From an uncultured Lachnospiraceae bacterium (GTDB lineage Bacteria > Bacillota > Clostridia > Lachnospirales > Lachnospiraceae), in NCBI GenBank assembly GCA_905236545.1, contig CAJOQO010000074.1, positions 1-25,805 of the forward strand: a DNA stretch of 25,805 nt. Direction: 5' to 3'. The position numbers were made by a program, and so were the translations under genes. How positions within the stretch are numbered: position 1 is the first letter of the stretch; each line of letters opens with the position of its first letter. This document shows positions 8,892-24,574 of the stretch, piece by piece. The notes below the pieces were generated by a model that searched no databases, was not told the DNA's origin, and worked only from the letters and a program-made list of their open reading frames with translations.

Positions 8892-10649
8892 TCACTGCAG
8901 CAGAATCGAACGAAGCGCCTGCGGATCAGCGACAATATGATCCGCTCCGTTTTCCCTTAACTCCTCAAGGCTTCCGTAACCGTACAAAACTCCGGCCGAG
9001 GCGCATCCGGCTTCCTTTGCCCCGATGATATCGTATCTGGAATCCCCCACCATGATCACATCCGCCGCGGTCAGTTCCAGATCCCGCAGCGCTCTTTCGA
9101 TCAGTACGCTCTTCCGGTTGGAGGGATCGTCCGGATCCGGGCCTGCAACCGTATCGAACAATCGAAGGATATCCATATGTGCCAGAATTCTTTCCGTCGT
9201 CTGCTGCGGCTTGGAGGTGACAACCGCGCACCGGATACCCGCCTGCTTCAGATCTGACAAAAGCTTCAGGATGCCGGGATATACCCGGAGGTTATAACAT
9301 TCCCCGGCCAGATAGCATTCACGGTACGCGTCGACCGCCTGTCTGGCTTCCTCCTCGCTCATCTGACAGTATGTCTGGAAGGAGTACATCAGGGACGGTC
9401 CGACAAATTTCCTCAGAACCGCATCCTCCGGTGCCGGATATCCCATCTTCTTCAGCGCGTAACGGACCGAATTCATGATTCCGGGACCGGAATCATTGAT
9501 GGTCCCGTCCAGATCAAACAAAACGGCGCGCCACTTCCCGGAAGCGGTTCCGGAAAAAGCGATCCTCCGGAGGAGTTCATCGCTGACGGCAAACGGTGCC
9601 TTCGCGCGTTTTGAGGGATTCGGGATCACCTCCCGGCAGCTCTGTTCCAGCGCGGAAAGCAGCTCCTCTTCAGAAGCCTCCGGACCCCCGCAGCAGGCAA
9701 GGTATGTTCTGCTGAAATCACTGACACCGGAGAATCCTGAAAGCTTCAGGATATGGGAGACCTCCTCCGGATCCGCCTCACTGAGGTATCCTGCCATGAA
9801 ATAGCAGACCGCATTGCCATGCGGAACATTCAGGCGGCAGGTAAGCGCATAGCTCAGCGCATGCGGAAGGCTGGTTCCCGTATGCGCGATTGCCATGCCT
9901 CCCAGCATCGCGGCGCGCATCATAGCCGCATAGTCCCCGTCTTCCGCCTCCTTCTCTCCTTTCAGAACACAAAGGCAGCGGCTCCACTCCTTCATCCCGC
10001 TTTCGGCAATCATACGGCTGAGCGGAGTGGCGTCCGCGTTCAGGAAGCTTTCATACAGATGGGAAAGCGCGTCGAATGCGGTATTGCACAGAACCTTCCT
10101 CCCTGCGAAGCGAAGGTACTTTCCGTCGATCAAAGACAGGGCAGGAAAGATCTTATGCGGGATCGATCCCTTTACTCCCTTAGCGTCATTGGTCAGCACG
10201 GATACCGCTGTCACTTCCGATCCGGTTCCGCAGGTTGTCGGGATACATACCACCGGGACGGTGCTGCTGTCCGTTCCCGGTTGATAGAGATACGCTCTGT
10301 CTTCTTCTGCATGGCGGATCATCAGAGCGACCGCTTTTGCGGCATCCATCGCGGACCCGCCCCCCGCTCCGATCACAAAGTCCGCCTGTTCCCTCAGCCC
10401 CAGATCCCTGGCTTCCATCACCGTCGTTACAGAAGGATTCTCCTCCACCTCATGAAACCAGGCATGCCCGATCCCGGCCTCCTCCAGCGCAGCGCAGATA
10501 TCGTCATAGACGCCGCACGCTTTCGCGCTGCGGCGGCCTGTCACGATCAGCGCCTTCTTTCCAAACCCTTTCAGCCCGGAAGCGTGTTTTCTGACTGCTT
10601 CCCTGCCGGATATCACCTTCACCGGCATATAGAATCTCTCTTCTGTCAT
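8892..10649 (-). CDS. Iron-containing alcohol dehydrogenase fused to a HAD-family phosphatase
   Basis: A 585-residue bifunctional protein. Residues 1-365 are a group III iron-containing alcohol dehydrogenase: GGGSAMDAAK (96-105) for NAD(P) binding, IPTTCGTGSEVT (136-147), and metal ligands Asp193 and His197 (AFDALSHLYE), His263 (LPHALSYAL) and His277 (VPHGNA). After a linker of only 6-8 residues, 374-585 form a phosphoglycolate-phosphatase-like HAD domain: DLDGT (379-383, nucleophile Asp379), TSK (478-480), Lys513 and GDSRYD (535-540). All catalytic residues look intact in both halves. The ATG overlaps the hydE stop (10646-10649, ATGA) with GGGAGG six bases upstream, so it belongs to the same transcript. 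The substrate is unknown; together the domains could dephosphorylate and then reduce or oxidise one metabolite. Confidence 0.88.
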   Translation of the reverse strand: MTEERFYMPVKVISGREAVRKHASGLKGFGKKALIVTGRRSAKACGVYDDICAALEEAGIGHAWFHEVEENPSVTTVMEARDLGLREQADFVIGAGGGSAMDAAKAVALMIRHAEEDRAYLYQPGTDSSTVPVVCIPTTCGTGSEVTAVSVLTNDAKGVKGSIPHKIFPALSLIDGKYLRFAGRKVLCNTAFDALSHLYESFLNADATPLSRMIAESGMKEWSRCLCVLKGEKEAEDGDYAAMMRAAMLGGMAIAHTGTSLPHALSYALTCRLNVPHGNAVCYFMAGYLSEADPEEVSHILKLSGFSGVSDFSRTYLACCGGPEASEEELLSALEQSCREVIPNPSKRAKAPFAVSDELLRRIAFSGTASGKWRAVLFDLDGTINDSGPGIMNSVRYALKKMGYPAPEDAVLRKFVGPSLMYSFQTYCQMSEEEARQAVDAYRECYLAGECYNLRVYPGILKLLSDLKQAGIRCAVVTSKPQQTTERILAHMDILRLFDTVAGPDPDDPSNRKSVLIERALRDLELTAADVIMVGDSRYDIIGAKEAGCASAGVLYGYGSLEELRENGADHIVADPQALRSILLQ

Positions 10650-11707
10650 TGCATTCCTCCCATTCCGCACCAGTCCCCGCGGCTGACCTTCACCTCGTAT
10701 CCGATCCCGGCGATTCTCATTTCCATACAATGCCTGCATTCCGCCGCCTCGTCCCCCGTACAGATCTTACCGTCATAGAGCAGGTATTTGCCGCGTACGC
10801 CGGACGGAGACAGATTGGGCATGACCACATTGGCTCCCGCGAGGATCCCCTTCTCCCTTCCGCGCGGATCGATCGTTCCCAGCGCTGTCGTTGCGGGGAG
10901 CAGTACCATCGGAAGCATCAGGCGGATGACCGACAGCAGATGAAGCGTATCGGCAACCGTTCCGCTCTTCTCTTTCGCGAACGGGGTATCCCTGTGCGGG
11001 ATAAACGGACCGATCCCGACCATGTGAGGCTGAAACGCAGCCATATAGTACAGATCGTCCAGAATATGGTCCGGCGTCTGTCCGGGGGATCCGACCATGA
11101 TCCCGCAGCCGACCTGGTATCCGATTTCCTTCAGGTCATCAAGGCACCTCTTCCTGTTTTCAATCGAAAGCTCCGGCGGATGCAGATACCTGTAATGCGC
11201 CGGATCAGAGGTTTCCTGCCTGAGCAGGTAACGGTCCGCCCCCGCCTGAAAATACCGCAGATAGCTTTCCCGTGTCTTTTCCCCGACCGAGAGCGTGACA
11301 GCACAGTCCGGGTGTCTGTCTTTGATTCCGGCCACCAGGCGGCACAGATCGTCGTCCCGGTAAAAAGGATCCTCGCCGCTTTGCAGAACGATGGTGCGGA
11401 ATCCCAGCTCATAACCCTGGTCGGCGCAGGCAAGGATCTCTTCCGCACTCAGCCGGTATCTCTGCGCCCGGGAGTTGGAACGTCTGAGCCCGCAATAGTA
11501 ACAGTCATTCCTGCAATAGCTGCTGAACTCGATCAGTCCGCGCAGAAAAACAGCCTTCCGGTAATAAAGCGAGCAGACCTCACAGGCCTGCCGGAAAAGA
11601 AATGTCTCTTCTTCCTCCGTCATGCTCTGCAGGAGGATGCGCATCTCCTCGCGCGCAAGCGTTTTCTCTTTCCGGAGAATCCGGATTCGTTCCATATTGG
11701 ATGTCAT
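10646..11707 (-). CDS. hydE: [FeFe]-hydrogenase maturase HydE (radical SAM)
   Basis: A 353-residue radical SAM enzyme. The CX3CX2C site is Cys65, Cys69 and Cys72 (YCRNDCYYCGLRR), exactly the HydE form. GEDPFY, LRQET, GCGIMVGSPGQT, GPFIPHRDTPF and MPNLSP are HydE landmarks. The optional second cluster site is also kept as Cys316, Cys324 and Cys327 (CTGDEAAECRHC), with the same 8 and 3 spacing as in Thermotoga HydE. In known systems HydE acts on the Fe(CO)2(CN)-cysteine complex made by HydG and helps form the azadithiolate-bridged diiron unit. hydG is not in this window. The gene follows hydF by 60 bp and is translationally coupled to the dehydrogenase-phosphatase downstream. GGAAGG lies about 10 bases before the start. 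Confidence 0.93.
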   Translation of the reverse strand: MTSNMERIRILRKEKTLAREEMRILLQSMTEEEETFLFRQACEVCSLYYRKAVFLRGLIEFSSYCRNDCYYCGLRRSNSRAQRYRLSAEEILACADQGYELGFRTIVLQSGEDPFYRDDDLCRLVAGIKDRHPDCAVTLSVGEKTRESYLRYFQAGADRYLLRQETSDPAHYRYLHPPELSIENRKRCLDDLKEIGYQVGCGIMVGSPGQTPDHILDDLYYMAAFQPHMVGIGPFIPHRDTPFAKEKSGTVADTLHLLSVIRLMLPMVLLPATTALGTIDPRGREKGILAGANVVMPNLSPSGVRGKYLLYDGKICTGDEAAECRHCMEMRIAGIGYEVKVSRGDWCGMGGMQ

Positions 11708-11753
11708 GGTTCCAGTTCCTTCCTGACATGATCCAGAACAAAGCTGCCGGGGG

Positions 11754-23786: not shown

Positions 23787-23818
23787 GCCCATATCTCCTC
23801 GATCACTCTCTCTTTCCG

Positions 23819-24574
23819 TTATGCTTCCTCATCGAGCAGTCTTTTTGCCAGATCCAGAAACCTTTTGCTTACTTCAAGCCCGGAATCTCCTTCGATCACG
23901 GTCTTTCCTTCTTCCTCAAAGCGGATGATCTCATCGCTCCTTGGGATCTCTCCGACGATTTCAAGTCCCCGCTCCTTCGCGAACGCGGCTACCTTCTGCG
24001 TTTCATTTTCCACATTCCGGTGATTCAGGATCAGACCCAGCACCCGGGCATAGCTTCGATCCTCAAAGTTCTTCACGGCACGATTGATGTTGTCGGCCGC
24101 GTAAAGAGCCATCTTTTCTCCGCTGGTCACGATCAGGACCTTCTGTGCATATCCTTCCCTGATCGGAGCAGCGAAGCCTCCGCAGACCACGTCTCCAAGC
24201 ACGTCATAAAGCACTACGTCAGGCTTCCAGCTTTCAAACAGCTTCAGTTCTTCCAGAAGCTGAAAGGTTGCGATGATTCCTCTTCCGGCGCAGCCAAGCC
24301 CGGGAGTCGGCCCGCCTGTTTCAATACACAGGATCCCTCTGTATCCCTCTGCGCTGATCTGCCGGTAATCATCCGGGTATTCGTCTCTGACACGCAGATA
24401 ATCCATCACCGGCTCAACCGCTTTTCCGCCCAGCAGGTTGATCGTGGAATCTGCCTTCGGATCACAGCCGATCTGGATCACCCGTTTTCCCAGACTCGCA
24501 AAGGCAGCCGCAAGATTTGCCGTCATGGTGGACTTGCCGATTCCACCCTTTCCATATATCGCAAGCTTTAACAT
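23819..24574 (-). CDS. NifH-like Fe protein (nitrogenase reductase family)
   Basis: A 251-residue ATPase and electron donor of the NifH/BchL/CfbC family. The P loop is YGKGGIGKST (7-16), followed by GCDPKADST (36-44). Both ligands of the bridging [4Fe-4S] cluster are present: Cys95 in GLGCAGRGI and Cys131 in GDVVCGGFAAPIRE. Arg98, the equivalent of the ADP-ribosylated arginine of NifH, is also kept. The protein is shorter than a true NifH (about 275-295). It should dock on the fused D/K protein and possibly on the second pair, giving ATP-driven low-potential electrons. AGGAG (24580-24584) is 5 bases before the ATG. The gene is first in the operon and stands behind a structured leader. Confidence 0.93.
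   Translation of the reverse strand: MLKLAIYGKGGIGKSTMTANLAAAFASLGKRVIQIGCDPKADSTINLLGGKAVEPVMDYLRVRDEYPDDYRQISAEGYRGILCIETGGPTPGLGCAGRGIIATFQLLEELKLFESWKPDVVLYDVLGDVVCGGFAAPIREGYAQKVLIVTSGEKMALYAADNINRAVKNFEDRSYARVLGLILNHRNVENETQKVAAFAKERGLEIVGEIPRSDEIIRFEEEGKTVIEGDSGLEVSKRFLDLAKRLLDEEA

What the first reader, a model, noticed from the sequence alone, without database searches (positions are those of the whole stretch)
8892..24574. Twelve-gene cluster joining nitrogenase-like proteins with HypCDEF and HydEF, without any hydrogenase
Seen: on one strand with short gaps lie a NifH-like protein, a fused NifD/K-like protein, hypF-C-D-E, a TM1266-type protein, a second NifD-like/NifK-like pair, hydF, hydE and a dehydrogenase-phosphatase fusion. 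Known: HypCDEF makes Fe(CN)2CO for [NiFe] hydrogenases, HydE and HydF assemble the [FeFe] H-cluster, and NifH/DK families do ATP-driven reductions or cofactor assembly. Inferred: the three machineries cooperate to make or use an iron-CO/CN organometallic cofactor on a nitrogenase-like scaffold, or to mature an unknown hydrogenase. hypA, hypB, hydG, nifB and hydrogenase subunits are absent here. I know of no named system with this set.
Basis: partly seen in the sequence, partly recalled or inferred. Interest (0 to 1): 0.95.

Follow-up and report, generated by a model that had tools for sequence, protein, structure and literature searches.

The report
HydG-free hydrogenase assembly by nitrogenase relatives
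Many gut bacteria and gas-eating Clostridium species have iron-iron hydrogenase genes but no detectable HydG, the enzyme known to make the carbon monoxide and cyanide of that enzyme's core, and carry instead one conserved block of hydrogenase-assembly and nitrogenase-like genes that likely builds this core by a different route.

Summary
In detail: the genes are there, and the core recurs in largely the same order across 80 fetched loci (Lachnospiraceae, Clostridium, Olsenella, Schwartzia, Mogibacterium and others). Hydrogenases are not missing: the window's own genome encodes two HydA-type proteins elsewhere. What is missing is HydG. Of 50 block genomes searched, 49 have HydA-type proteins, 1 has HydG over the curated cut-off, and 5 have a whole [NiFe] large subunit. 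In two genome samples the block occurs in 8 of 15 and 7 of 16 HydF+/HydG- genomes and in 0 of 85 and 0 of 210 HydF+/HydG+ genomes. Catalytic cysteines of HypC, HypD, HypE, NifH and HydE are conserved. Best reading: the block replaces HydG. HypCDEF would make the Fe-CN/CO unit, two NifEN-like ATP-driven pairs would remodel it and hand it on, and HydE and HydF would finish the [2Fe] cluster. The replacement is well supported by comparative genomics; the chemical steps are inferred. Ten literature searches found no description; one paper reports the missing HydG in such acetogens as unexplained. Some HydF+/HydG- genomes show only the second nitrogenase-like pair, and some show neither.

The parts
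23819..24574 (-). NifH-like Fe protein (251 aa), module 1
   Evidence: PF00142 289 bits; aligns with C. pasteurianum Fe protein 1cp2 over P-loop, CAGRGI and DVVCGGFA; Fe-S ligands C95 and C131 in 86 of 86 aligned NifH1; upstream of the D/K gene in 66 of 67 loci
21159..23792 (-). Fused NifD/K-like (NifEN-like) protein D1K1 (877 aa), module 1
   Evidence: PF00148 twice; best solved-structure fold match is fused NifEN 9i0g (E 1.2e-24 but TM 0.34; model pLDDT 71); C68, C69, C126, C129, C224, C491, C496 invariant in 20 sequences
18767..21157 (-). HypF carbamoyltransferase
   Evidence: TIGR00143 732 bits, cut-off 466; 64 of 68 loci
18480..18731 (-). HypC (likely starts at the internal MCVGL, so that its Cys is Cys2)
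   Evidence: TIGR00074 59 bits, cut-off 48; this Cys conserved in 69 of 69
17213..18304 (-). HypD
   Evidence: TIGR00075 373 bits; C42, C70, C73 and six C-terminal Cys at 1.00 of 74 aligned
16171..17184 (-). HypE, ends in PRIC
   Evidence: TIGR02124 424 bits (scanned as the ORF 16171-17304); aligned to the C-terminal LLPRIC of 3vti; C-terminal Cys at 0.99 of 70
15825..16196 (-). TM1266-type putative regulator of iron-only hydrogenase systems
   Evidence: TIGR03959 105 bits, cut-off 60.8
14429..15904 (-). NifD-like protein D2, module 2
   Evidence: PF00148 58.5 bits; C83, C87, C147 at 0.99, 1.00, 1.00 of 69; NifEN and methylthio-alkane reductase folds best (model pLDDT 82)
13130..14347 (-). NifK/NifE-like protein K2, module 2
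   Evidence: PF00148 95 bits; H38, C43, H50 at 0.98, 0.93, 0.98 of 61; profile matches fused NifEN 9i0g, E 2e-22
11768..12997 (-). HydF GTPase scaffold
   Evidence: TIGR03918 525 bits, cut-off 326
10646..11707 (-). HydE radical SAM maturase
   Evidence: TIGR03956 549 bits, cut-off 254.6; CX3CX2C in 23 of 23 aligned rows, at least one of which is a HydG
8892..10739 (-). Fe-alcohol dehydrogenase/HAD fusion: neighbour, membership open
   Evidence: Pfam; follows hydF in L072, but most loci end before this place

Best explanation
The block is most likely a HydG-independent pathway for building the [2Fe] half of the H-cluster of ordinary [FeFe]-hydrogenases, in which HypCDEF would make an Fe-CN/CO unit, two nitrogenase-like pairs would remodel and hand it on, and HydE and HydF would finish it. 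Shown by calls: the block is conserved as a unit, its genomes have HydA-type proteins, and they lack HydG and mostly lack [NiFe] hydrogenases. Inferred step 1: HypF and HypE turn carbamoyl phosphate into cyanide (their established chemistry), and HypC-HypD load it with CO onto iron. Inferred step 2: the NifH-like protein drives electrons, with ATP, into the NifEN-like D1K1 protein, which accepts the iron unit from HypCD and adjusts its ligands toward the Fe(CO)2(CN) unit that HydG would have made, for example by adding CO from CO2 reduction or by reductive loss of one cyanide. Inferred step 3: the second pair D2K2, whose genes often sit with hydE and hydF, passes the unit to HydE. Step 4, standard HydE and HydF chemistry: dimerisation, the dithiomethylamine bridge, transfer to HydA. 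The division of labour between D1K1 and D2K2 is the weakest point.
For: Recurrence: 442 stretches of genome contigs encode D1K1 relatives, the best 80 fetched, with conserved order. HydG over cut-off in 1 of 50 block genomes, C. drakei; 10 of the 17 weaker hits of 171-228 bits tested, all ThiH. HydA-type proteins in 49 of 50. Whole [NiFe] large subunit in 5 of 50, no match in 38 of 50. Samples: order, block in 8 of 15 HydF+/HydG- and 0 of 85 HydF+/HydG+ genomes (Fisher 3e-8); phylum, 7 of 16 and 0 of 210 (Fisher 2e-9); handles recounted. Genomes are related and the samples share the window's genome, so p is nominal. Catalytic Cys of HypC, HypD, HypE, NifH, HydE and HydF conserved. Block HypD and HypE fall apart from the [NiFe]-linked sets of three genomes that have both. 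HydE and HydF of block genomes are interleaved with those of HydG genomes, as expected if only the upstream step was swapped. An [FeFe]-hydrogenase complex, HytABCDE1E2, was purified from C. autoethanogenum (passage of PMC9431212); C. ljungdahlii, which I recall as its close relative, has the block and no HydG hit over 68 bits.
Against: No biochemistry. In the phylum sample three HydF+/HydG- genomes (G298, G556, G578) carry NifH2-D2-K2, two of them with hydE and hydF beside it, but no D1K1 and no hyp genes in the 20 kb seen; whether they have hyp elsewhere was not tested. Four well-assembled HydF+/HydG- genomes of the order sample (G017, G129, G008, G053) gave no nitrogenase-like match yet have HydA-type matches, and so does G351 of the phylum sample, so HydG can be missing without this block. 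C. drakei has both HydG and the block. HydF and HydE were seen near the block in only 20 and 11 of 40 wide loci, a lower bound because loci end there. CAETHG_0339 was annotated as HydG in C. autoethanogenum and PMC9431212 prefers CLAU_RS03260; neither, nor the block in that species, was tested here. PF02906 is not specific for H-cluster enzymes: two genomes without HydF over cut-off (G005, G052), added, also match.
Confidence: 0.75

Rival explanations
1. The block makes a new Fe-CO/CN cofactor that stays on one of the D/K proteins, which are themselves an unknown ATP-driven reductase, and HydE/HydF serve both this enzyme and HydA.
For: D and K proteins keep Cys sets and resemble both assembly proteins and catalytic reductases such as methylthio-alkane reductase.
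Against: Does not explain why the block tracks the absence of HydG. An added enzyme should also occur in HydG genomes, but 0 of 85 and 0 of 210 have it; only C. drakei among the 50 has both.
Confidence: 0.1
2. The hyp genes serve [NiFe] hydrogenases and the nitrogenase-like genes do something unrelated; they are only co-located in a hydrogen-metabolism island.
For: Five of 50 block genomes have a whole [NiFe] large subunit, and in two of these, C. ljungdahlii and C. drakei, no hyp genes were seen beside it; PMC9431212 assigns the HypCDEF of these acetogens to [NiFe] enzymes.
Against: 38 of 50 block genomes have no match to a [NiFe] large subunit and 7 more only a 68-70 residue N-terminal match in 361-396 residue frames. 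The other three genomes with a [NiFe] enzyme have a second, separate hypCDE set beside it, outside the block clade. The window has no hypA or hypB.
Confidence: 0.04
3. H-cluster CO and CN are scavenged from the cell by HydE/HydF, and the nitrogenase-like proteins only detoxify cyanide or CO.
For: PMC9431212 raises ligand scavenging, citing about 1% activation by HydE plus HydF alone; nitrogenases are known to reduce cyanide and CO (recalled).
Against: About 1% seems too little for acetogens that live on these enzymes, and cyanide-making HypF, HypE, HypC and HypD inside the block argue for dedicated supply, not clean-up.
Confidence: 0.05
4. Same pathway, other division of labour: D1K1 or D2K2 only makes CO from CO2, HypCDEF only makes cyanide, and assembly happens on HydE/HydF.
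For: Nitrogenase Fe proteins and VFe protein can reduce CO2 to CO (recalled); D2K2 can sit with hydE/hydF and occur without D1K1 and nearby hyp.
Against: Both pairs look most like NifEN, a scaffold, among the better matches in sequence and fold, though catalytic nitrogenases follow closely; no test here separates scaffold from catalyst.
Confidence: 0.25

Closest known systems
HydE-HydF-HydG maturation of [FeFe]-hydrogenase
   Same: HydE and HydF over NCBIfam cut-offs, radical SAM motif intact, TM1266 regulator, HydA-type client in the genome
   Different: HydG, the source of CO, CN and the Fe(CO)2CN synthon, is absent over cut-off in 49 of 50 block genomes
HypABCDEF maturation of [NiFe]-hydrogenase
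   Same: HypF, HypC, HypD and HypE with catalytic Cys kept
   Different: no HypA or HypB in the window, usually no [NiFe] large subunit in the genome; block HypD and HypE lie on the other side of a supported branch from three [NiFe]-linked sets
NifH-NifEN cofactor assembly of nitrogenase, including fused NifEN of 9i0g
   Same: Fe protein plus NifE/NifN-type pair; D1K1 fused like 9i0g, its first fold match
   Different: 14-18% identity in the NifEN rows, 101 of 505 bits to NifE; works beside Hyp and Hyd genes; no nifB in the window
Nitrogenase-like reductases CfbCD, BchLNB/ChlLNB, methylthio-alkane reductase
   Same: ATP-driven Fe protein plus D/K-like pair acting on something other than N2
   Different: CfbC, BchL, BchX, BchB and BchN cut-offs not reached; neighbours are hyp and hyd genes instead
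HydG-less Clostridium acetogens of PMC9431212
   Same: C. ljungdahlii and C. carboxidivorans, both among the block genomes, are listed with HydE and HydF but no HydG; C. ljungdahlii with HypCDEF but no HypAB
   Different: the paper offers no replacement and assigns the hyp genes to [NiFe] enzymes (section 17 read); the only 'nitrogenase' found in its text is in a cited review title

Membership tests
HydEFG [FeFe]-hydrogenase maturation system | HydE and HydF | tested here: met
   549 and 525 bits, over cut-offs
HydEFG [FeFe]-hydrogenase maturation system | HydG tyrosine lyase with C-terminal cluster domain | tested here: not met
   own genome none over cut-off (72.5% complete); 1 of 50 block genomes; 10 of 10 weaker hits tested, of 17, are ThiH
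HydEFG [FeFe]-hydrogenase maturation system | HydA client | tested here: met
   two in the own genome, 49 of 50 block genomes; PF02906 also matched two genomes without HydF over cut-off
[NiFe]-hydrogenase maturation system | HypC, HypD, HypE, HypF | tested here: met
   all over cut-offs; catalytic Cys conserved
[NiFe]-hydrogenase maturation system | [NiFe] large subunit as client | tested here: not met
   38 of 50 no match, 7 short N-terminal matches, 5 whole; not searched in the own genome
[NiFe]-hydrogenase maturation system | HypA and HypB nickel insertion | not tested
   none seen in the window; genome-wide search not run; PMC9431212 lists none for C. ljungdahlii
Nitrogenase NifHDK | over the curated NifH and NifD cut-offs | tested here: not met
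   NifH 297 of 394 bits; NifD 33 of 654 bits
Nitrogenase NifHDK | FeMo-cofactor Cys ligand in D | tested here: inconclusive
   no invariant Cys between residue 224 and the linker of D1; ligand position judged by eye from recalled nitrogenase numbering
NifEN scaffold | NifE/NifN-type pair with an Fe protein | tested here: inconclusive
   among the nearest in sequence and fold but 101 of 505 bits to NifE
NifEN scaffold | carries a cofactor precursor | not testable with these tools
   needs purified protein and spectroscopy

The most novel reading that the evidence does not exclude
A third way to make biological Fe-CO/CN: nitrogenase-like ATP-driven enzymes, fed by HypCDEF cyanide, build the Fe(CO)2CN unit of the H-cluster and wholly replace the radical tyrosine lyase HydG across gut Lachnospiraceae, Coriobacteriia and Clostridium acetogens, joining the assembly lines of nitrogenase, [NiFe]- and [FeFe]-hydrogenase into one.
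Probability: 0.55. Interest if true: 0.97.

Novelty: categorically new. Interest (0 to 1): 0.93.

Why it matters
A December 2025 paper still describes H-cluster assembly in vivo as requiring HydG, HydE and HydF (abstract start of PMC12752695 in the listing). If the block replaces HydG, CO and cyanide for [FeFe]-hydrogenases have a second biological source, HypCDEF gains a client outside [NiFe] enzymes, and a large group of unassigned nitrogenase-like genes in gut and rumen bacteria gains a function. It would explain the reported absence of HydG in gas-fermenting acetogens and give a tractable organism, C. ljungdahlii, in which to test it.

Tried and rejected
Rejected: HydG missed because genomes are incomplete. 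Of the 50 genomes, 14 records are titled as strains, isolates or species and not as uncultured or MAG, and 13 of these 14, including the complete chromosome of C. carboxidivorans, lack HydG over cut-off. Rejected: a divergent HydG (10 of the 17 hits of 171-228 bits tested, all ten ThiH at 473-523 bits; seven not tested). Rejected for most genomes: the hyp genes belong to [NiFe] enzymes. First judged a bystander, then left open on checking: the Fe-ADH/HAD fusion (one search shows that most loci end before it). Expected but not found: HydE and HydF of block genomes as a separate clade; they are interleaved with HydG-type ones. Led nowhere: ten paper searches gave no description; PMC6203783 passages held nothing on the block. 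The AlphaFold model of D1K1 is only fair (pLDDT 71, pTM 0.61) and its whole-length match to 9i0g has TM 0.34, so it supports the superfamily and no more. A second nitrogenase-like family (about 25-34% identity) appears in the same searches, also in HydG+ genomes, without hypF in the short loci seen; it was kept out of the counts as not the block. In the co-occurrence counts a block means a D1 or D1K1 relative with hypF seen beside it (G136). The phylum HydG count uses E <= 1e-80 (213 genomes, 212 over the cut-off). The block search scores only the best first-look candidates of each genome.

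
Full report
What is there. The window (contig 74 of a 2.41 Mb, 349-contig assembly, 72.5% complete) carries twelve minus-strand genes between 24574 and 8892: NifH-like, a fused NifD/K-like protein (877 aa), hypF, hypC, hypD, hypE, a TM1266-type gene, NifD-like D2, NifK-like K2, hydF, hydE and an Fe-alcohol dehydrogenase/HAD fusion. Hyp proteins, HydF, HydE and TM1266 score over curated cut-offs. 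The nitrogenase-like proteins belong to the superfamilies but reach no specific nitrogenase cut-off.

It recurs. A scan of one genome per species found 442 stretches encoding relatives of the D/K protein, and the best 80 were fetched: many Lachnospiraceae, Clostridium ljungdahlii, C. carboxidivorans, C. drakei, C. luticellarii, C. muellerianum, Faecalicatena, Olsenella and other Atopobiaceae, Schwartzia, Mogibacterium, Oscillospiraceae, and one Lentisphaeria assembly. The order nifH, D/K, hypF, hypC, hypD, hypE is nearly invariant (66 of 67, 64 of 68, 63 of 63, 60 of 60, 56 of 58 where flank allowed). D and K are one ORF in 50 loci and two ORFs in 30. D2 is seen in 36 of 40 wide loci, and over all 80 loci downstream in 45, upstream in 12 and not seen in 23; a second nifH copy is seen in 26 of 80; hydF is near in 20 and hydE in 11 of 40 wide loci, lower bounds because many loci end right there. 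So there are two modules: nifH1-D1K1-hypFCDE, and (nifH2)-D2-K2, often with hydF, hydE and TM1266. Whether the ADH/HAD gene belongs stays open.

What it goes with. I searched the whole genomes of 50 of the 80 loci. HydA-type proteins (PF02906) are in 49 of 50. HydG over its cut-off is in 1 of 50, C. drakei. The next 17 hits lie at 171-228 bits; ten were tested and all ten are ThiH, the thiamine enzyme, at 473-523 bits against a cut-off of 380. [NiFe] large subunits: 38 of 50 none, 7 with only a 68-70 residue N-terminal match, 5 matched from end to end, some in pieces. Three of those five carry a separate hypC-hypD-hypE set beside the [NiFe] genes, and in HypD and HypE trees these three fall on the other side of a supported branch from 74 and 70 block sequences (the HypE bootstrap had not settled and one [NiFe] row is long). 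In the other two, C. ljungdahlii and C. drakei, no hyp genes were seen in the 20 kb around the [NiFe] gene, so there the block set might serve both.

Samples. In 196 genomes of the window's order, HydF is over cut-off in 100 and HydG in 86. Fifteen are HydF+/HydG- (recounted): eight have the block (G000, G173, G135, G160, G136, G075, G120, G084, neighbours), one has D2K2 at a contig end (G151), one is an 80%-complete genome of the same genus as G084, G135 and G151 (G174), one has a different nitrogenase-like family (G156), and four have no nitrogenase-like match (G017, G129, G008, G053). None of the 85 HydF+/HydG+ genomes has the block (Fisher 3e-8). In 398 genomes of the phylum, 226 have HydF and 213 have HydG at E <= 1e-80. 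Sixteen are HydF+/HydG-: seven have the block (one is the window's genome again, another the Schwartzia genome already among the 50), three have only the D2K2 pair with nifH2, with hydE and hydF beside it in G298 and G556 and with TM1266 in G578, and six have neither (G327, G351, G366, G397, G436, G532; four of these are in about 290 to 390 contigs, G366 is 80% complete, but G351 is 99% complete in about 20). None of 210 HydF+/HydG+ genomes has the block (Fisher 2e-9). All 29 HydF+/HydG- genomes other than the window's own, given, have a HydA-type match; but so do the two genomes without HydF over cut-off added to that call, so the match alone proves little. Genomes are related by descent, so the p values are nominal; the HydE and HydF trees need 4 and 6 changes of the block label, so in those trees it is not one clade.

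Are the parts intact? In the loci scanned (block loci and a few neighbours) the catalytic residues are kept: HypC Cys (69 of 69), HypD C42, C70, C73 and six C-terminal Cys (1.00 of 74), HypE C-terminal Cys (0.99 of 70), NifH C95 and C131 (86 of 86 for NifH1, 37 of 37 for NifH2), HydE CX3CX2C (23 of 23 rows, at least one of them the HydG of C. drakei), and HydF C306, C355, C358 (at least 0.97 of 34). D2 keeps C83, C87, C147; K2 keeps H38, C43, H50. D1K1 keeps C68, C69, C126, C129, C224, C491, C496 in 20 of 20 aligned. Profiles and predicted folds of both pairs come close to NifEN, the nitrogenase cofactor scaffold, with catalytic nitrogenases and methylthio-alkane reductase near behind or, for the D1 profile, slightly ahead; identities in the fold lists are 11-18%.

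How it most likely works. HydG normally makes CO and CN from tyrosine and passes an Fe(Cys)(CO)2(CN) unit to HydE (passages of PMC11736057 and PMC9431212). Here HydG is gone, HydE and HydF are unchanged in kind, and a cyanide-making HypCDEF set is locked to a NifH/NifEN-like protein. The simplest reading is that HypF and HypE make cyanide, HypCD loads CN and CO onto iron, the nitrogenase-like pairs use ATP and low-potential electrons to adjust and carry the unit, and HydE takes over. HypCD's known product has two CN and one CO per iron, while the H-cluster needs one CN per iron and more CO. That mismatch is a reason why an extra reductive, remodelling step would be needed, and nitrogenases are known to reduce CO2 to CO and to reduce cyanide (recalled). 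This chemistry is inference.

What speaks against it. Three genomes do without module 1 in the stretch seen, five well-assembled genomes (G017, G129, G008, G053, G351) do without HydG and without a nitrogenase-like match, and C. drakei has both systems. So loss of HydG does not predict the block, though the block predicts absence of HydG in 49 of 50, 8 of 8 and 7 of 7 genomes of overlapping sets. In these genomes the cluster instead holds a FecCD-type permease with an ATPase fused to a TM1266 domain (G298, G578) and a periplasmic binding protein (all three).

What is known. PMC9431212 (passages; section 17 read whole) reports that five of eight Clostridium acetogens, among them C. ljungdahlii and C. 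carboxidivorans, have HydE and HydF but no detected HydG, that five of eight have HypCDEF without HypAB, and that C. carboxidivorans has two hypCDE sets. It gives no firm explanation, and its authors wonder about mechanisms not yet identified. The block offers an answer to the missing HydG and to the doubled hypCDE set; locus tags were not matched here. The paper also mentions that an [FeFe]-hydrogenase complex was purified from C. autoethanogenum, a species for which it does list a HydG. Ten searches of open papers found no account of the block; subscription papers and preprints were not covered.

Verdict. The co-occurrence and the likely replacement of HydG are strong; the chemistry is open. 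The system fails a defining test of each known kind it resembles (no HydG; usually no [NiFe] client; below nitrogenase cut-offs), so I rate it categorically new as a pathway built from known parts.

Noticed in passing
L160 9249-19865, L161 7018-15066, L162 7816-15707: HydF+/HydG- genomes with nifH2-D2-K2 but no D1K1 or hyp in the 20 kb seen hold a FecCD-type permease (L160, L162) and a periplasmic binding protein (all three) in the same cluster; the ABC ATPase of L160 and L162 is fused to a C-terminal TM1266 domain.
   Followed up: partly
L140, L141, L142, L143: Four well-assembled genomes (G017, G129, G008, G053) have HydF and HydA-type matches but neither HydG over cut-off nor any nitrogenase-like match: perhaps a further route. 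In L142 a beta-eliminating lyase gene adjoins hydF.
   Followed up: partly
L092-L097, L127-L129, L175 2764-5943: A second, separate nitrogenase-like family (nifH about 55-58%, D and K about 25-34% to the block) without hypF in the short loci seen, also in HydG+ genomes; in L175 a cytochrome P450-like gene adjoins it.
   Followed up: partly
L043, L173, L212 (C. drakei): C. drakei carries both the block and a full HydG (948 bits), a natural two-pathway strain useful for genetics.
   Followed up: no
window 8892-10739: Fusion of an Fe-containing alcohol dehydrogenase with a HAD phosphatase, also following hydF in the near relative L072.
   Followed up: partly
window 24899-25606: 235 aa protein upstream of the block with no Pfam match.
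   Followed up: no
window 5219-5986, 6201-7205 and 7318-8895: By eye a LarB-like protein, a diaminopimelate dehydrogenase-like protein and an arabinose isomerase-like protein downstream of the block (names recalled, no call).
   Followed up: no
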